From Thermoplasmata archaeon (lineage in GTDB: Archaea; Thermoplasmatota; Thermoplasmata; Thermoplasmatales; Thermoplasmataceae), in the NCBI GenBank assembly GCA_021846395.1, contig JAJZXB010000014.1, positions 1 to 35,303 on the forward strand: a DNA stretch of 35,303 nucleotides. Direction: 5' to 3'. The translations under genes and the position numbers were made by a program. The notes beneath the pieces were generated by a model that had not been told where the DNA came from, did not search any database, and saw nothing but the letters and a program-made list of their open reading frames with translations. Positions 6,895-35,303 of this stretch are shown one piece after another. How positions within the stretch are numbered: position 1 is the first letter of the stretch; each line of letters opens with the position of its first letter.

Positions 6895-7548
6895 ATGAAT
6901 GTAAAAATAATTGATGGTAGAAAAGAGAAAAACTTTGATGGATCAACAAAGATTCTTATAGATATTTTCAGATCAACGAGCACCATACCGTTGATTTTGT
7001 ATAAGGAAGCAAAATATGTTATTCCTGTCAGAACAGTTACCGAAACGAGAAGGTTGAAAAATAAAAATCCAGAATACCTTACAAGTGGGGAACGGTTTGG
7101 AATAAGAATACCAGGATTCAATTATGAGAATTCGCCATATTCAATTATGAACTCAAATTTGAAGGATAAAATATTGCTGTTTACTTCAACAAATGGCATC
7201 AAGGTCCTGTTCAAGATAAGAGAATATCCTGGAGATATCTATATATCTTCCTTTATCAACTTTACTGCAACTTATGAAGCCGTGAAAAATCTAGATAATG
7301 TTTCACTTATAGTATCCAATAGGCCTGATGGAAAATCTGATGAGGATTATATTTTTGCAGATATGTTTAAGGAAAAACTTGAAGGGAGGGATGTCAACAT
7401 AGAGGAATATATGGATAGAATAAGGGAAAGCCACGGAGCAAAGAGATTGAAAATTATGGGGGCTTCACACGATATTGAATCCTCACTTACACTTGATATT
7501 TACAATCACAGGGTCATGTATAAGGATGAAAAAATAATAACAGTTTAA
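6895..7548 (+). CDS. ComB-family protein (2-phosphosulfolactate phosphatase fold)
   Basis: A 217-residue member of the ComB family. Family hallmarks are present: DIFRSTSTI near the N terminus (the family's DVLRATST-type Mg/substrate loop), SGERFGIRIPGFNYENSP (GE..G..I.GF..GNSP type) and FTSTNGIKVL (TTNGT type). ComB hydrolyses 2-phosphosulfolactate in coenzyme M synthesis in methanogens. Thermoplasmatales are not known to make coenzyme M, so the substrate here is unknown. It stands alone, divergent from the L11 operon and convergent with mptE. Confidence 0.85.
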   Translation: MNVKIIDGRKEKNFDGSTKILIDIFRSTSTIPLILYKEAKYVIPVRTVTETRRLKNKNPEYLTSGERFGIRIPGFNYENSPYSIMNSNLKDKILLFTSTNGIKVLFKIREYPGDIYISSFINFTATYEAVKNLDNVSLIVSNRPDGKSDEDYIFADMFKEKLEGRDVNIEEYMDRIRESHGAKRLKIMGASHDIESSLTLDIYNHRVMYKDEKIITV

Positions 7549-7607
7549 AATAAACGAGTTGTAAATTTCTATACAGGCAGGATAATGTTTGACTGTGGAT
7601 ATCATGG

Positions 7608-8288
7608 TCATATTTCAATTATTCCCCCCTCCTTAAAATTTTTCCCCCTTTCATTTCCCAGAATTGTTAGAAGTTTTTTTGCCCAAATGAGCTTTTTTTT
7701 CTTAAATAATATTGAATTTTCATCATAATAATTTTTTAAAGATATATTATTAAAATCAAAGCCTATAAGGGAGATTGATGCTGCATTTAAATAATTTGCC
7801 AGATAAGCCGATCTATCGCCATCAGTGAATCCAAAAAAATTATATATATTTTTTATCGGTATATTCTGTGTTGTTCCTATTGCGCTGTTCTTAAAATAAT
7901 CGGCATATTTAATAATTTTATCAATGTTATCGCCGTGTGAGTGAATGATGAGCTTTGTGCCAATATCATACTGATATTTCAAAAGGTCTATGCTGCCATC
8001 AAGGTCAGAAACGATTATATCTGGATTTCTATTAAAATTTTCCAGAAATATTGATAATGCGGAATCTGCAACTATAATAACTCCTCTAGATATGGATGGC
8101 AAATATTCCTTCAAGTTTATGCCGTTGCCTATTACATAGAAATTTTTATTACTGTAAGTTTTTATTATATCATCTTTATTGTTAATATACTGTGATAATA
8201 TGAAAGAAGAATACAAATCAATATTTCTATCTATATTTAGTGAATCTGTTATTTTAATGTAGATATTTATCCATTCAGACAGTTTCAT
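7608..8288 (-). CDS. mptE: 6-hydroxymethyl-7,8-dihydropterin pyrophosphokinase, MptE-like (DUF115)
   Basis: A 226-residue protein of the archaeal MptE/DUF115 family, which diphosphorylates hydroxymethyldihydropterin during folate or pterin synthesis. Visible features are the FYVIGNGINLKE loop, the ADSALSIFLE segment, PDIIVSDLDG (probable metal/ATP site), HSHGDNIDKI, and FGFTDGDRSAYLA near the C terminus, all in family order. Its ATG overlaps the stop of the DUF373 gene by 4 nt, so the two are translationally coupled. The pterin product would fit the molybdopterin or folate needs of the cell, but the path is not shown here. Confidence 0.85.
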   Translation of the reverse strand: MKLSEWINIYIKITDSLNIDRNIDLYSSFILSQYINNKDDIIKTYSNKNFYVIGNGINLKEYLPSISRGVIIVADSALSIFLENFNRNPDIIVSDLDGSIDLLKYQYDIGTKLIIHSHGDNIDKIIKYADYFKNSAIGTTQNIPIKNIYNFFGFTDGDRSAYLANYLNAASISLIGFDFNNISLKNYYDENSILFKKKKLIWAKKLLTILGNERGKNFKEGGIIEI

Positions 8289-9415
8289 TTTACACCAAAT
8301 AAATTTTTGCCTTTTGATTTGAGAGTTGATCTGTATTTGTGCAGTACTGCACTTAATAAAGCCATGATTATGCCTGCAATTAAAAGTATGCTGTAAATGA
8401 ATACTGCGGAAAATGGAATAAAGCCTATTATGAATCTAATATAATTTATCATACCGTACGAAATGAGTATCAGTGCGAGAGAGAATGAAATACCGTACCA
8501 TATCTTGGATATGCTGTGATTTTTAAATATGAAAAATTCTTCGAAGGCATCGAATAATGCTTTTGATAAATATGATGCATAGACAAACCAGACAAAAATT
8601 GTCAGAAATACGAGAATTTTATTTAAAATAGGGGATGTTTTAATGGTTATTTCGTAAGTATATGTAATTCCTATTACAATAATAAAAAAGGAAACAACGT
8701 AGGAAAGAAGTGATATTTTTGTTTCCTGTGAATACTCCTTTAAACCAACAAGCAGGGTAACAGTTTTATTTTTAATATCTGAACCCTTGCCGATAAAATA
8801 TGTTCCTATGACAATTGTAACAAGCATTATGGCACCAGAAGATGGAATAATTGCATACGATCGTGAAATTACTATGGAATACACCGTGAAAATCAGCAAT
8901 GACATTCCATAACTGAGGAGAAGAAGTCCAACAGGAATGGTAAACTTTCGTGCAATTTTTTTATCCTGGAATGCCTTGACAATGTAGTAATACATCGACT
9001 CTATGTTTTCATTATGCCTTACAAGTATGTGCTTGATATACCTTATTTTTATTCTTGAGGCAATTATGGGCGTAATATAATCATCTTCTGCACCGTCAGA
9101 TATGAGAATTAAATTATCATAATGATCCATAGATAATATTTCATCAAGCTGCAGGCTCAATTTTTCGTCAGATTTTTCACCGACATTATCATCTCCCGTT
9201 ATCAGGGCAATTTCAACATTTTCGTTTTTTTTCTTCAATTCATTATAGTGTTTTAAAGCACCAAATAAAGCGTTGGAATCAGAATCCTCTGGATCACTCG
9301 CTATTAATTTGCTTGCAGTGTTATAACACTGAGTGTATCCTATAACCGGTCCGGTAATCCCGACCTTAATACCGAAGTCGTTATCCCTGTCTATATTTAA
9401 AATCAAGGTTTTCAT
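8285..9415 (-). CDS. DUF373-family membrane protein
   Basis: A 376-residue protein of the archaeal DUF373 family. The soluble N-terminal domain (about 1-150) starts with LILNIDRDNDFG and continues with NALFGALKHYNEL, VEIALITGDDNVGEKSDEKL and ILISDGAEDDYI; these acidic loops look like a nucleotide- or metal-binding fold. The rest holds about six to eight membrane spans and ends in a basic tail. The biochemical role of the family is not established. It is the first gene of a two-gene unit with mptE, overlapping it by 4 nt. Confidence 0.85.
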   Translation of the reverse strand: MKTLILNIDRDNDFGIKVGITGPVIGYTQCYNTASKLIASDPEDSDSNALFGALKHYNELKKKNENVEIALITGDDNVGEKSDEKLSLQLDEILSMDHYDNLILISDGAEDDYITPIIASRIKIRYIKHILVRHNENIESMYYYIVKAFQDKKIARKFTIPVGLLLLSYGMSLLIFTVYSIVISRSYAIIPSSGAIMLVTIVIGTYFIGKGSDIKNKTVTLLVGLKEYSQETKISLLSYVVSFFIIVIGITYTYEITIKTSPILNKILVFLTIFVWFVYASYLSKALFDAFEEFFIFKNHSISKIWYGISFSLALILISYGMINYIRFIIGFIPFSAVFIYSILLIAGIIMALLSAVLHKYRSTLKSKGKNLFGVK

Positions 9416-9475
9416 GTTATAATATAATAAATATATGAGAGTATTTAAATATTTATTTGTGAAGAAACATAGAAA

Positions 9476-9691
9476 TTATTTAAAAATGTAATATCCCGCA
9501 CTCTTTTGTCTTGCAACTCTCTTAACATATTTTTTATCCATCAACTCCTGAAGAGCTGCATTGATCATGGATTTTCCAAGGCCTGCTGCCTTCATAATAT
9601 CGTCTGACGTTTTAAGTTTATTATCCGAAATAGCACCCAGTTTTTTCATTGCCTCGTATACTTTCTGAGCGTTGTTAGATAAATTGTCCAT
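9476..9691 (-). CDS. Small winged-helix DNA-binding protein
   Basis: A 71-residue protein with a compact winged-helix pattern: helix 1 (NNAQKVYEAMKKLG), a helix-turn-helix (TSDDIMKAAGLGKSMINAALQELMDK) and a wing (VKRVARQKSAGYYIF). No other domain is present. It probably binds DNA as a small regulator or chromatin-associated factor, but the target is unknown. A T/A-rich, TATA-like stretch (TATATAAATA) lies about 30 nt upstream. Confidence 0.8.
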   Translation of the reverse strand: MDNLSNNAQKVYEAMKKLGAISDNKLKTSDDIMKAAGLGKSMINAALQELMDKKYVKRVARQKSAGYYIFK

Positions 9692-10076
9692 AGCTACCTG
9701 ACAGATATATTTATGATAAATATATAAATATTTTTATATAGATTATTTATATCTGCAAATTATTTTAATATATGGGAAAAAATTCTTTTCTGAAAGGTAG
9801 AGTATGAAAGCCAAAATTTACGGTCATTAAAAAATAATAGTTTGCCAATCAACAGCGGGAATGGAAGATGGATAGCAACATTCTGGCTCAATGCGTGCTG
9901 GTGCCTGTAAAGTCAAGGGGTTGAACGGGGAAGGCAAAGTAACCCCACCCGAGAAGAATTCATACCTGTTGTGGGTTTTGATAGTAACCTTAGAAGCAGG
10001 AATCCAGATGGAGAAGGAAGTCATAGCTGTGCCTTATTTAATAAAGCATTTATAACATCACATAATATTAGGTAAT
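9692..10076 (+). other. Decayed intergenic stretch with a 54-codon frame, possibly a TnpB tail
   Basis: This 385-bp gap is richer in G+C between about 9850 and 10030 than neighbouring spacers, as if it came from a gene. A plus-strand frame of 54 codons (9891-10055) reads GACKVKGLNGEGKVTPPEKN and later TLEAGIQ. The spacing of these segments faintly resembles the C-terminal tail of IS200/IS605 OrfB (TnpB) proteins. A stop codon 18 nt before its first ATG cuts it from anything upstream. No catalytic domain, zinc ribbon or intact start is present. An unrecognised noncoding RNA is an alternative. Confidence 0.25.
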
Positions 10077-32116: not shown

Positions 32117-32566
32117 TCATTTCCTATACATGTATTTATTAAAGATTGCCCTAATATGTTCACTGTAAATAACCGTGAATATTATCAATATCACAACTGG
32201 TATAAATGCATAAATGTATAATTTATAAATAAGTAAGGGTATTATTATTAAAATAGATATAAGGTATGTTGTGGATATTATTCCTACTTTTATGTTTTCC
32301 TTCCTTATATTATTGTATTTTTTAAGATCTAAATCTTTATAATAATTTTCTTTATTCCTTTTTATTAATTTATTATATCCATATATGTGCAATGCTAAAA
32401 GAGCCGCTATGGAAAAAGCCAATAGAATAAATATTATCGTATTCATTACATTAGGCGATTTTACAAATATTAATGATATTATTATCATGGCCAAAAATAT
32501 TGAAAGAAATGCTATTCTTATTTTAGACCATTTTAATTCTCTTACAATTATTTTATTGCTTTCCAT
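32117..32566 (-). CDS. 149-residue membrane protein paired with array protein A (candidate immunity protein)
   Basis: The start is the ATG at 32566, which is 1 nt behind the stop of array protein A. A longer in-frame reading (to 32647) would overlap A entirely and is unlikely. The protein has four hydrophobic segments in two pairs (about 20-33 and 38-60, then 85-105 and 110-130), separated by a basic linker with YYKDLDLKKYNN. I recognise no family. Its position directly behind an array peptide and its lack of resemblance to the other partners fit a cognate immunity or accessory protein. The role is inferred. Confidence 0.65.
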   Translation of the reverse strand: MESNKIIVRELKWSKIRIAFLSIFLAMIIISLIFVKSPNVMNTIIFILLAFSIAALLALHIYGYNKLIKRNKENYYKDLDLKKYNNIRKENIKVGIISTTYLISILIIIPLLIYKLYIYAFIPVVILIIFTVIYSEHIRAIFNKYMYRK

Positions 32567-32567
32567 A

Positions 32568-32939
32568 TTAAAAGACCCCGAAACAAGCATCAAACATTCC
32601 AAGTTCACCCACTGCACCCACAAAATCAGTAAGTGCCATATACCCATAGAAAGCGGTCATTGTATCAAAGGTTACATTTACCCCCGGTATACCTTGAATT
32701 AAAACAAACGCTGCGATAACAGCGATTATTGATATTATGCACCACCAATTATAATCTACCACCATTGCATTCGTTTCACTTATATTCATGGACTTTACAG
32801 TATTATTTGTTTTACTTAACATTGAATTCATTGCCATTGAGATGTAATTATTTTCTATACCGAATTTATGCATTGTAATATTGTTTGAATTCATATAATA
32901 CATTGATAATAAATAAATGGAATTTATTAAAGTTTTCAT
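32568..32939 (-). CDS. Array protein A: conserved leader with variable hydrophobic core (candidate archaeocin precursor)
   Basis: A 123-residue protein. Residues 1-60 form the conserved N-terminal half shared with B, C and D (MKTLINSIYL at the start, TMHKFGIENNY in the middle, MNISETNAMV at the end). After it come Trp65-Trp66-Cys67 and a hydrophobic, Gly/Ala-rich segment of two membrane-length helices, then Cys119 in the ending MFDACFGVF. Core residues share little with the other three copies. It begins 4 nt behind the 80-residue membrane protein, with CTGGTTACC conserved just upstream of the start codon, as in copy C. No modification enzyme lies within the window. Confidence 0.8.
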   Translation of the reverse strand: MKTLINSIYLLSMYYMNSNNITMHKFGIENNYISMAMNSMLSKTNNTVKSMNISETNAMVVDYNWWCIISIIAVIAAFVLIQGIPGVNVTFDTMTAFYGYMALTDFVGAVGELGMFDACFGVF

Positions 32940-32943
32940 CTGG

Positions 32944-33186
32944 TTACCATAAAATATTATTTATGTTGGCAAATTGTTTTCTTTTATGTATGTATAGATA
33001 CAAATTAGATCCCAATAATATTAAAAATGCAATATATAGAATCAATATTGTAAACATGTTTTTATATGCATTTTTTAAATCAATAAATATTGCCAGAGTT
33101 AGGAAAATTAAAAATAGGGAATACACTACAATTCCAATTTTCAATTTTTTCAATAGTGCAAATTCATTATCCCCATTATCTTTCAT
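32944..33186 (-). CDS. 80-residue two-to-three-span membrane protein (paralog of the 34717-34962 gene)
   Basis: A small basic membrane protein with hydrophobic segments at about 13-35 and 45-65, and a cationic tail ending NINNILW. It is clearly related to the 81-residue protein at 34717: LKIGIVVYSLF vs LKIAIAVMALY, then LYLYIHK vs IYLYIHN, and the same terminal NILW. Both copies stand immediately before an array protein. A ribosome site AAGGTG precedes the ATG. Unlike the other partners it has no intact array protein upstream; only a short remnant precedes it (33187-33270). A candidate immunity gene that lost its peptide. Confidence 0.72.
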   Translation of the reverse strand: MKDNGDNEFALLKKLKIGIVVYSLFLIFLTLAIFIDLKNAYKNMFTILILYIAFLILLGSNLYLYIHKRKQFANINNILW

Positions 33187-33270
33187 GTTAACACCTTAAC
33201 CAAATATGGAAGAGCCTATTAAATTTACAGCAATTATGTTACACAATAGAAAAACCCATTATTCAAATTA
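33187..33270 (-). other. Short remnant between two membrane-protein genes, possible end of a lost array peptide
   Basis: The 84-bp gap reads, on the minus strand, an open stretch WVFLLCNIIAVNLIGSSIFG that ends at a stop followed directly by the AAGGTG site of the 80-residue gene. The placement (short hydrophobic end, stop, ribosome site, membrane protein) matches the ends of array proteins D and B. No ATG or leader remains. It may be the stump of a deleted peptide gene. Confidence 0.3.
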
Positions 33271-33678
33271 TTATTCGTCGTTTTTTAATTTCCTTTTAGT
33301 AATTGAGTAAAAATATGATAATATTATAACTAAAAATATAATAGCTGATAATCCAGATATTATTATATTCATTGTTAACAATGTTATACTTATTAACATA
33401 ATTCCAAATATTATTGATATTACAAAAAATAATTTTTTGTCTTCGGTTCTAATAATTATTTTCTCCTTGTTGTTAATGATTTTATTTTTTTCATAGTAAT
33501 ATGTGAAAATTATCGTAATCATAAGTAATGAAAAGAAGATGATAGCACTTTCAGTTATTATTTTTCCATTATCATATAAAAAGATGAAAATTTCTATTAA
33601 TAATTCTATTAAAATAGCTATTAATAAAAGAACTATAAAAACACGTAATTTGTATAATTTATTTATATTATTTTTCAT
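33271..33678 (-). CDS. 135-residue membrane protein paired with array protein B (candidate immunity protein)
   Basis: Four hydrophobic segments in two hairpins (about 11-33 and 41-60, then 78-98 and 102-122) and a charged Lys-rich linker and tail. The arrangement recalls the 149-residue partner of copy A, but I see no clear sequence match. It starts 6 nt behind the stop of array protein B, and the B stop codon (TGA) lies inside its GGTGA ribosome site. This indicates tight coupling of the two products. The family is unknown to me, and immunity is inferred from position. Confidence 0.65.
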   Translation of the reverse strand: MKNNINKLYKLRVFIVLLLIAILIELLIEIFIFLYDNGKIITESAIIFFSLLMITIIFTYYYEKNKIINNKEKIIIRTEDKKLFFVISIIFGIMLISITLLTMNIIISGLSAIIFLVIILSYFYSITKRKLKNDE

Positions 33679-33684
33679 ATTAAA

Positions 33685-34056
33685 TCACCAATTACATGCA
33701 TGACCCACGGAAAGTATTCCGAAAATCGTAGTGCCAAAATATCCTACTAACCAAATCATGGCAGGAGCACCTATTCCATCTGTTCCAACTGTAACAAATG
33801 CGGCACTGGCAATGACAATACTCATAGCAAATATAAAGGCAATTATCGATATTATGCACCATAACTCTGAATCAATTACCATGGCATTCGTTTCACTTAT
33901 ATTCATAGATTTTGCAGTATTATTTGTCTTGCCCAACATTGAATTCATTGCCATTGAGATGTAATTATTTTCTATACCGAATTTATGCATTGTAATATTG
34001 TTTGAATTCATATAATACATTAATATTAAGTCAATTGAATATATTAAGGTTTTCAT
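33685..34056 (-). CDS. Array protein B (candidate archaeocin precursor)
   Basis: A 123-residue protein of the same layout: leader 1-60 almost identical to A, C and D (28-residue block encoded by invariant DNA), Trp66-Cys67, a hydrophobic core with AFIFAMSIVIASAAFVTVG and a Gly-rich part with GYFGTTIFGILSVG, and Cys121 in the ending HACNW. Its upstream region lacks the CTGGTTACC element found before copies A and C. The stop overlaps the ribosome site of the 135-residue gene. Confidence 0.8.
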   Translation of the reverse strand: MKTLIYSIDLILMYYMNSNNITMHKFGIENNYISMAMNSMLGKTNNTAKSMNISETNAMVIDSELWCIISIIAFIFAMSIVIASAAFVTVGTDGIGAPAMIWLVGYFGTTIFGILSVGHACNW

Positions 34057-34084
34057 GCAATTAATATGGAATATAGAAAATATA

Positions 34085-34297
34085 TTATTTTCTAAATAAT
34101 TGCTCGGGCTTCTTATTTTTAATTAAAATTGCCATAACTATTCCAAGTATAAGTCCCATTAAATAAATAATAAACGTAATTTTGCTTTTTGATAATATTG
34201 CAATAATAATTTCTAAAGTGGAAAAGGAAATTAGATAGTAAGTTGTTATCATTACCAATAATTTTTTCCTTTTTTTATCCATATTTTTAATATACAT
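34085..34297 (-). CDS. 70-residue two-span membrane protein paired with array protein C
   Basis: I start this protein at the ATG at 34297. A GTG at 34306 is in frame but lies inside the AGGTGA ribosome site itself and cannot be the start. The protein has a basic N terminus (NMDKKRKK), two hydrophobic segments (about 11-34 and 39-58) and a Lys-rich tail ending LFRK. It begins about 16 nt behind the stop of array protein C. It is unlike the other partners in sequence. Candidate immunity protein by position only. Confidence 0.62.
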   Translation of the reverse strand: MYIKNMDKKRKKLLVMITTYYLISFSTLEIIIAILSKSKITFIIYLMGLILGIVMAILIKNKKPEQLFRK

Positions 34298-34313
34298 TTT
34301 ATTCACCTATTAA

Positions 34314-34712
34314 TTACGGCATTCCCGCTTCCCCATATGGCCAAGGACAAGTATGTGTCATACTAAACACATTTTTAACAACACTAAATGCTCCAAATCC
34401 AAAGGTAGCTATTGCAACTAATAATGCCCAACCAACAGGGTTTGTTAATAATACGGCTGCAGCTGCTATTACAGCTATCCAACCACCTATTTCCGATAAA
34501 ACGGATAATATACATCCCCAATTGTTATCAATTACCATTGCATTTGTACTATTTATCTTCACATTCTTTACAGTATTATTTGTTTTACCCAACATGGAAT
34601 TCATTGCCATTGAGATGTAATTATTTTCTATACCGAATTTATGCATTGTAATATTGTTTGAATTCATATAATACAGTGATGATAAATAAATGGAATTTAT
34701 TAAAGCTTTCAT
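34314..34712 (-). CDS. Array protein C (candidate archaeocin precursor)
   Basis: A 132-residue protein. The leader matches the others (MKALINSIYL; then the invariant part with MHKFGIENNY), but its end differs slightly (KNVKINSTNAMVID). Cys67 follows Trp65-Gly66. The core is very rich in Ala, Gly and Val (IAVIAAAAVLLTNPVGWALL, then FGFGAFSVV), and Cys122 lies in THTCPWPYG, with a longer tail than in the other copies. It begins 4 nt behind the 81-residue membrane protein, and CTGGTTACC is conserved before its start as in copy A. Confidence 0.8.
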   Translation of the reverse strand: MKALINSIYLSSLYYMNSNNITMHKFGIENNYISMAMNSMLGKTNNTVKNVKINSTNAMVIDNNWGCILSVLSEIGGWIAVIAAAAVLLTNPVGWALLVAIATFGFGAFSVVKNVFSMTHTCPWPYGEAGMP

Positions 34713-34716
34713 CTGG

Positions 34717-34962
34717 TTACCATAATATATTTTTTATATGGTTAAGTTTTTTTTTATTATGTATATATAAATATATATATATTAATAAAGACGGTAAAGT
34801 CATTAAATAGAGATAAAAAAAATTCACTCTATTTTCATATGCCCATTTTAAATTAAACATTGCAACTATTGTTATACTAATAGAATATAATGCCATTACT
34901 GCTATTGCAATTTTTAATCCTTTCAACCCTTTTAACATTGGTTCTTCTTTATCGTTTTTCAT
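34717..34962 (-). CDS. 81-residue membrane protein paired with array protein D
   Basis: A small protein with a charged N terminus (KNDKEEP), three hydrophobic stretches (about 16-33, then a middle segment ending LKWAYEN, then FFYLYLMTLPSLLIYIYLYI) and a basic tail ending in NILW. It is a paralog of the 80-residue protein at 32944. An AAGGTGAT ribosome site, overlapping the end of array protein D, precedes the ATG. Since the same two paralogs also stand just before copies A and C, it may instead belong with the downstream peptide. Confidence 0.72.
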   Translation of the reverse strand: MKNDKEEPMLKGLKGLKIAIAVMALYSISITIVAMFNLKWAYENRVNFFYLYLMTLPSLLIYIYLYIHNKKKLNHIKNILW

Positions 34963-34971
34963 ATTATCACC

Positions 34972-35303
34972 TTAACTCCAATGTGTACCAAAACAGGTAT
35001 GAGTGACCCCCATTACTGACAGCCCACCGGCGGAAGATATGAGAAAATCAGCTGTATAAATTGTTGCAATAGTAGCATCAGCTGCAATATCTACAACCGG
35101 TATAAACTGTAAAGCAATAAAAATAGCTATGGCCAGTATAGCAGTTATACACCAAAAAGTACTGTCTATAACCATTGCATTCGTTTCACTTATATTCATG
35201 GATTTTACAGTATTATTTGTTTTACCCAACATGGAATTCATTGCCATTGAGATGTAATTATTTTCTATACCGAATTTATGCATTGTAATATTGTTTGAAT
35301 TCA
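34972..35303 (-). CDS. Array protein D, 5' end outside window (candidate archaeocin precursor)
   Basis: The reading frame runs to the right edge; the true start lies beyond it, since the visible end reads NSNNITMHKF, which is residue 17 onward of the family. By alignment the full protein is about 125 residues. Cys67 follows Phe-Trp, the hydrophobic core includes AIAIFIALQFIPVVDIAADA, and Cys119 lies in THTCFGTHWS, similar to the THTC of copy C. The leader is of the common type. The array clearly continues beyond the window. Confidence 0.8.
   Translation of the reverse strand, partial: NSNNITMHKFGIENNYISMAMNSMLGKTNNTVKSMNISETNAMVIDSTFWCITAILAIAIFIALQFIPVVDIAADATIATIYTADFLISSAGGLSVMGVTHTCFGTHWS

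What the first reader, a model, noticed from the sequence alone, without database searches (positions are those of the whole stretch)
32117..35303. Array of four constant-leader/variable-core peptides, each with a small membrane partner: candidate archaeocin locus
Four consecutive genes share residues 1-60 almost exactly and then diverge completely into hydrophobic, Gly/Ala-rich cores. Every copy is followed within about 1-16 nt by a different small multi-pass membrane protein. Such an architecture (common leader, diverse pore-like core, dedicated partner) is known from bacteriocin-immunity gene sets, and archaeal peptides such as halocin C8 and the sulfolobicins show that archaea make antimicrobial peptides. 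I recognise no known family. No protease, transporter or maturation enzyme is in the window, but the array runs off the right edge.
Basis: partly seen in the sequence, partly recalled or inferred. Interest (0 to 1): 0.92.

Follow-up and report, generated by a model that had tools for sequence, protein, structure and literature searches.

The report
Swappable secreted peptide toxins in archaea
Acid-loving archaea related to Ferroplasma carry arrays of interchangeable genes that most likely encode small membrane-active killer peptides, each with its own protective membrane protein, built like the swappable toxin arrays of bacteria but made from a peptide family not in the current protein-family libraries.

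Summary
The array is real. On the minus strand, four genes share one constant stretch, then diverge into unrelated hydrophobic cores, each followed at once by its own small membrane protein. A fifth membrane protein (32944-33186) has lost its core. The 'leader' is not a bacteriocin leader: it is the C-terminal third of a longer constant region. Full-length relatives (about 305 aa; intact in Ferroplasma-clade genomes) have a signal peptide, a beta-rich pro-domain, a helical constant region and a core of about 62 aa. The window genes are truncated cassettes, laid out like orphan CdiA-CT/CdiI modules. Core type and partner type covary strongly (Mantel r = 0.74, 0 of 20,000 permutations), also after controlling for the constant region. 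Cores are nearly free of Lys/Arg, have two hydrophobic segments, and 39 of 43 carry a Cys near each end. Partners outlive lost cores under purifying selection. Best reading: a polymorphic secreted peptide-toxin system with cognate membrane immunity; cores are swapped by recombination through the constant region. There was no match in Pfam, NCBIfam or PDB, nor by fold search. Toxicity and immunity are inferred, not shown. A conserved out-of-phase A-tract in the genus's signal-bearing head genes is unexplained.

The parts
34972..35301 (-). Cassette 1: constant region (5' end cut by the contig edge) plus core of 64 aa (about 34972-35166), Cys at core positions 6 and 58
   Evidence: same core type as L027 head and L033 second cassette
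34717..34962 (-). Partner 1, 81 aa, two hydrophobic segments, predicted immunity protein
   Evidence: closest partner is the one behind the same core type in L027 (score 0.80); dN/dS 0.21
34314..34712 (-). Cassette 2: constant region (no signal peptide) plus core of 71 aa (about 34314-34529)
34085..34306 (-). Partner 2, 73 aa (GTG start; internal ATG possible), two hydrophobic segments
33685..34056 (-). Cassette 3: constant region plus core of 62 aa (about 33685-33873), related core in G141
33271..33678 (-). Partner 3, 135 aa, four hydrophobic segments
33187..33206 (-). Remnant of the 3' end of a lost core gene (TTTGGTTAAGGTGTTAACATG context)
   Evidence: matches the core end/partner start of L032 (ACATTGGAGTTAAGGTGTTAACATG)
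32944..33186 (-). Orphan partner, 80 aa: predicted immunity protein whose core has been deleted
   Evidence: related to the partner behind the L032 head core, dN/dS 0.43
32568..32939 (-). Cassette 4: constant region plus core of 62 aa (about 32568-32756)
32117..32569 (-). Partner 4, 150 aa, four hydrophobic segments; start overlaps the core's stop codon

Best explanation
A polymorphic secreted peptide-toxin system of Thermoplasmatales. SHOWN by sequence: a head gene encodes signal peptide, pro-domain (beta-rich in the model), helical constant region and a variable core of 47-76 aa, directly followed by a small membrane protein matched to that core type; further cassettes downstream carry only the 3' part of the constant region, a different core and its own partner. 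INFERRED: the precursor is exported and the core is cut off near the invariant Asp. Its end cysteines may join, giving a disulfide-closed helical hairpin. The hairpin has almost no Lys/Arg, so in strong acid it would be close to uncharged and could insert into the membrane of related archaea, probably as a pore or channel. The partner sits in the producer's membrane and blocks its cognate core. The cassettes without signal peptide are a reserve: recombination through the near-identical constant region, which concerted evolution keeps alike within a genome, can put a new core behind the secreted pro-domain, while retained partners protect against siblings' variants.
For: Full-length precursors open through in Ferroplasma-clade genomes, with signal-peptide-like N-termini. 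Alignment A2 shows an invariant Asp just before the core and an invariant C-terminal Cys. Core-partner Mantel r = 0.74, 0 of 20,000 permutations; partial Mantel controlling for the constant region 0.70, 0 of 20,000; cross-genus r = 0.18, 47 of 20,000, and the best cross-genus core pair has the best partner pair of 384. All but one of the full-length cores collected have a partner at once downstream. Cores: GRAVY 1.3, mostly zero K/R, Cys near both ends in 39 of 43. Toxin loss with partner kept: window 32944, a nonsense codon in the C22 core, and a C55 orphan; C22/C55 partners have dN/dS 0.09. Constant region homogenised: G154 copies 99% identical at DNA level with unrelated cores. Some cassettes lack a start codon, as reported for orphan cdiA-CT modules (PMC3150448). 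Predicted model: N-terminal helix, beta domain 52-167, helices 171-221, core helical hairpin 239-302.
Against: No toxicity or immunity data exist here. The structural model has low confidence (mean pLDDT 54) and no fold match. In the window's own genus no intact secreted head was found: the signal-bearing heads are out of phase at an A-tract or otherwise damaged, so the system may be switched off or decaying there. One core comparison gives dN/dS above 1, on few changes. No maturation protease or dedicated exporter was identified. Core-partner covariation could also arise from an obligate two-subunit membrane complex.
Confidence: 0.72

Rival explanations
1. Self/non-self recognition or surface-variation system: the variable core is displayed, anchored in the membrane, and each partner is an assembly factor or receptor for its core. 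Recombination diversifies a surface tag rather than a toxin, as proposed among other options for VARTIG in Thermococcales.
For: Long head gene plus array of genes homologous to its C-terminus plus matched membrane proteins is also the VARTIG layout (PMC8416519). Hydrophobic cores could anchor the protein.
Against: The variable part is a K/R-poor hydrophobic hairpin, hardly a displayed epitope. Partners persist where the core is gone, which is expected for immunity and not for an assembly factor.
Confidence: 0.12
2. Chromosomal two-component membrane unit unrelated to conflict: core and partner are subunits of small membrane complexes (for example signalling, transport or respiratory accessory) that were duplicated and diverged.
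For: Strict adjacency and covariation; distant single-copy versions with a strongly conserved core (dN/dS 0.02-0.05) and partner in other genera.
Against: Patchy distribution (16 of 77 family genomes), extreme core diversity within one genome, frequent decay, insertion sequences in Fer1, loss of core with partner kept.
Confidence: 0.1
3. Decaying relic in this genus: an originally functional Ferroplasma-type toxin system whose heads are pseudogenes, so the window array is at most an immunity reservoir. (This can be true of the window together with the best explanation for the family.)
For: All signal-bearing heads seen in G000 and G001 are out of phase at the A-tract or truncated; the heads for three array ends are missing at contig breaks.
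Against: Both halves on either side of the frame break show purifying selection (pro-domain dN/dS 0.08-0.18, signal part about 0.2-0.5), and cores stay open in most cassettes.
Confidence: 0.25

Closest known systems
Orphan cdiA-CT/cdiI and rhs modules (polymorphic toxin systems; PMC3150448)
   Same: Long secreted protein with variable C-terminus, cognate downstream partner, downstream array of truncated C-terminal modules with their own partners, some without start codon, orphan immunity genes, insertion sequences in some loci.
   Different: The presumed toxin is a hydrophobic peptide of about 62 aa, not a nuclease or other enzyme; precursor of about 305 aa with only a signal peptide, no two-partner, type VI or Rhs shell; archaeal.
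Halocin C8 (HalC8/HalI precursor) and HalH4
   Same: Secreted archaeal precursor whose C-terminal fragment is the active part (HalC8, HalH4 as summarised in PMC12893001).
   Different: Two Cys rather than the cysteine-rich HalC8 peptide (own knowledge), no twin-arginine signal visible, separate membrane partner rather than immunity only in the pro-domain, and arrays of swappable cores.
VARTIG modules of Thermococcales (PMC8416519)
   Same: Archaeal; long head gene, downstream array related to its C-terminus, matched membrane proteins, recombination in the C-terminus.
   Different: VARTIG is built of Ig domains and large proteins, its function is open, and it is reported as restricted to Thermococcales; no sequence link found here.
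Fusellovirus SSV9 B310 / C108 secreted toxin
   Same: Secreted archaeal toxin of about 310 aa followed by a small multi-pass membrane protein (PMC8628083).
   Different: No sequence relation (hhalign probability 0.1%), no hydrophobic C-terminal core, viral single copy.

Membership tests
Polymorphic toxin system (CDI/Rhs type) | Secreted long protein with constant N-part and variable C-terminal toxin | tested here: inconclusive
   Layout met: signal-peptide-like N-terminus, constant region, variable core. That the core is toxic was not tested.
Polymorphic toxin system (CDI/Rhs type) | Cognate immunity gene directly downstream, specific to the toxin type | tested here: inconclusive
   Adjacency and covariation met; protection itself not testable here.
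Polymorphic toxin system (CDI/Rhs type) | Downstream orphan toxin/immunity modules homologous to the C-terminus | tested here: met
   truncated cassettes behind heads; orphan partner at 32944.
Polymorphic toxin system (CDI/Rhs type) | Known toxin domains and known trafficking modules (two-partner secretion, type VI, type VII, Rhs shell) | tested here: not met
   No Pfam or NCBIfam match for heads, cores or partners. Hence not filed as a member, only as working like one.
Halocin C8 | Sequence similarity or cysteine-rich mature peptide with twin-arginine signal | tested here: not met
   Cores have two Cys (36 of 43); N-termini show no twin arginine; no library match. No HalC8 sequence was compared directly.
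Halocin C8 / HalH4 | Proteolytic release of an active C-terminal peptide | not testable with these tools
   Architecture is compatible; processing needs peptide mass data.
Class II bacteriocins with double-glycine leader | Short leader ending in Gly-Gly plus peptidase-containing ABC exporter | tested here: not met
   No Gly-Gly before the core; the shared stretch is part of a constant region of about 230 aa. An exporter was not searched for systematically.
VARTIG | Ig domains in head and downstream genes, Thermococcales | tested here: not met
   No Ig match; relatives found here lie in Thermoplasmata.
Fusellovirus B310 toxin | Sequence homology to B310 | tested here: not met
   hhalign probability 0.1%; no tblastn match in phage records.
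Sulfolobicins | Homology to SulA/SulB | not tested
   Sequences not fetched; no family model matched.

The most novel reading that the evidence does not exclude
An archaeal peptide-toxin system that swaps its killing peptide by recombination within a tandem cassette array, and that in this genus also gates production of the secreted precursor by a conserved +1 frame break at an A6-A8 tract (programmed frameshift, transcript slippage or phase variation).
Probability: 0.25. Interest if true: 0.9.

Novelty: new variant of a known kind. Interest (0 to 1): 0.78.

Why it matters
Very few archaeal peptide toxins are known, and immunity to them is barely understood. This gives a family with more than 40 core/partner pairs, present in the Ferroplasma clade (G011 is a complete one-contig genome with an intact head, 100% identical in the shared part to F. 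acidarmanus Fer1), so killing, immunity specificity and switching become directly testable in culturable organisms. It would show that the polymorphic-toxin layout of bacteria (variable end, cognate immunity, orphan reserve) has an archaeal version built on small membrane peptides in extreme acidophiles.

Tried and rejected
Library searches with cores, partners and full precursors gave only chance-level hits. Fold searches against PDB and BFVD found nothing usable. Viral contigs and phage records hold no relative, so a viral origin is not supported. SSV9 B310, with a similar layout, was compared and is unrelated. The bacteriocin-leader idea was dropped once full-length precursors appeared. Makarova et al. 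2019 (mBio 10:e00715-19), the main survey of archaeal toxins, is not in the library, so I could not check whether it already lists this family; that is the main risk to the novelty claim. A first frame assignment of the pro-domain was wrong and was redone. The most diverse alignment (A2) could not be used to scan genome contigs.
Full report
WHAT IS THERE. The window is one whole contig (C24) of a 1.66-Mb genome (G000) of the Thermoplasmatales family that includes Ferroplasma. At its right end, on the minus strand, four genes share a constant stretch and then diverge. Order of transcription: core 1 (34972-35301, cut by the contig edge), partner 1, core 2, partner 2, core 3, partner 3, an extra partner without core (32944-33186), core 4, partner 4. 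Window core DNA is about as alike as shuffled sequence, while the constant DNA averages 91.5% identity in G000.

THE 'LEADER' IS THE TAIL OF A PRECURSOR. The same stretch occurs at 12 places in G000 and 9 in the congener G001. In several arrays the first copy is much longer. Searching the class with the G011 protein (303 aa) found intact full-length copies in G011, G141, G166 (five) and G198, and remote relatives at 20-24% identity in other genera and another family. A full-length protein has a signal-peptide-like N-terminus, a constant region of roughly 210-230 aa and a hydrophobic core that begins at an invariant Asp. AlphaFold2 (mean pLDDT 54, so only a guide) gives an N-terminal helix, a beta domain (52-167), two constant helices (171-221), a linker and a core helical hairpin (239-302). 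Nothing similar was found in Pfam, NCBIfam, PDB sequences, PDB folds or viral folds. Named relatives include Ferroplasma acidarmanus Fer1 and several Thermoplasmata MAGs.

CASSETTES. The short genes start at or near 'MKTLINS' inside the constant region and lack the signal peptide. Some have no start codon there (G154, G141, one in G001). In the window the DNA ATTTTATGGTAACCAGATG at the end of one partner (coding ...ILW-stop) is nearly the same as the constant region coding '...FYGNQM' in another frame: partner and next cassette are joined within the repeat itself. Constant DNA is homogenised within a genome: in G154 three copies are 99% identical with unrelated cores, and G000 copies average 0.915 among themselves versus about 0.65 to Ferroplasma-clade copies. 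Between the two congeners G000 and G001 the gap is small (0.915 and 0.929 within, 0.896 between). I read this as concerted evolution by recombination.

CORE AND PARTNER BELONG TOGETHER. All but one of the full-length cores collected have a hydrophobic partner at -23 to +24 nt. Over 43 distinct pairs the core and partner similarity matrices correlate with r = 0.74 (0 of 20,000 permutations reach it); with the constant region partialled out and the three remote genomes left out, r = 0.70 (0 of 20,000); between genera only, r = 0.18 (47 of 20,000), and the best core pair across genera has the best partner pair of 384. Cores are 47-76 aa (median 62), GRAVY 1.3, net acidic, mostly without a single Lys or Arg, with Cys near both ends in 39 of 43; partners are basic and mostly have two or four hydrophobic segments.

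PARTNERS OUTLIVE CORES. Upstream of 32944-33186 lies TTTGGTTAAGGTGTTAACATG, matching the core end and partner start of L032 (ACATTGGAGTTAAGGTGTTAACATG): the core was deleted and the partner kept. In C22 a core has a TAG nonsense codon and its partner is intact; the same partner type stands without core in G001 C55, and the two are under strong purifying selection (dN/dS 0.09). In Fer1 two transposase genes split the precursor while the partner remains. This is what an immunity gene predicts.

MECHANISM. Shown: the anatomy, the covariation, the homogenised constant region, the loss pattern. Inferred: export by the signal peptide, cleavage before the core, disulfide between the end cysteines, insertion of the nearly uncharged hairpin into the membrane of competitors, neutralisation by the partner, and switching by recombination through the constant region. 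The closest functional parallels are orphan cdiA-CT/cdiI modules, which also often lack start signals and may serve as a toxin reserve and immunity repertoire (PMC3150448), the HalC8 and HalH4 precursors, which release active C-terminal fragments (PMC12893001), and VARTIG in Thermococcales (PMC8416519). It works like a polymorphic toxin system, but known toxin and trafficking domains are absent, so I do not file it as a member.

DISTRIBUTION. 16 of 77 genomes of the family match; arrays were seen only in G000/G001 and the Ferroplasma clade, with single-copy relatives in other genera and in a second family. Those checked (G015, G030, G262, G284, G090) end in Cys and are followed by a membrane protein. 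The precursor-partner pair therefore looks older than the arrays. No relative was found in viral contigs or phage records.

OPEN PROBLEM. In G000 and G001 the heads that keep a signal peptide are out of phase at the same A-tract (GTAAAAAATAGGA and variants, where GTAAAAATAGGA would be in frame; contigs C23 and C20 of G000, C34 and C55 of G001), whereas Ferroplasma-clade heads are mostly open. Other heads in this genus are damaged in other ways: G001 C40 has lost its signal peptide, G001 C25 has it replaced, and G000 C12 is decayed. Yet both sides of the break show purifying selection (pro-domain dN/dS 0.08-0.18; signal part 0.22-0.53). Recoding, phase variation and spread of an inactive allele by gene conversion all remain possible. 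The window's own head is not assembled: three array ends (C24, C7, C6) and three head ends (C20, C23 end, C11 end) face contig breaks.

VERDICT. Most likely a new archaeal variant of the polymorphic-toxin theme, based on a secreted membrane-active peptide with cognate membrane immunity. No activity has been measured, and one key survey (Makarova et al. 2019) could not be read.

Noticed in passing
L027:7277-7435, L035 about 7440-7640, L034 about 8300-8460, L107:1-342 (minus): Signal-bearing head genes in the window's genus share a +1 out-of-phase A-tract (A6 or A8) while both sides stay under purifying selection.
   Followed up: partly
L074:5157-8795 (F. acidarmanus Fer1, NC_021592): The precursor gene is split by two transposase-like ORFs (families judged by eye); the partner behind it is intact and identical to that of G011.
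   Followed up: partly
L028:7192-7398 and downstream partner: Core with a TAG nonsense codon after a few residues, partner intact; same partner type stands without core in L035.
   Followed up: yes
window 35303, L025:1, L026:14000: Three contigs end inside the repeated constant region: arrays are under-assembled in short-read genomes and may be missed or fragmented in surveys.
   Followed up: yes
L110, L111, L114 (G015, G030, G262): Single-copy relatives with four Cys in a strongly conserved core (dN/dS 0.02-0.05) and a faster-diverging partner of 130-138 aa; the opposite pattern to the arrays.
   Followed up: partly
L113/L049 (G284): Relative whose precursor carries extra PKD/Ig-like stretches before the pro-domain (by eye, not tested), ends in Cys, followed by a multi-pass protein of up to 138 aa.
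   Followed up: no
L033:8360-8732, L098 (minus-strand offset 9417-9771), L091:5430-5745: Cassettes without an ATG at the usual start position, suggesting they are silent reserves rather than independent genes.
   Followed up: partly
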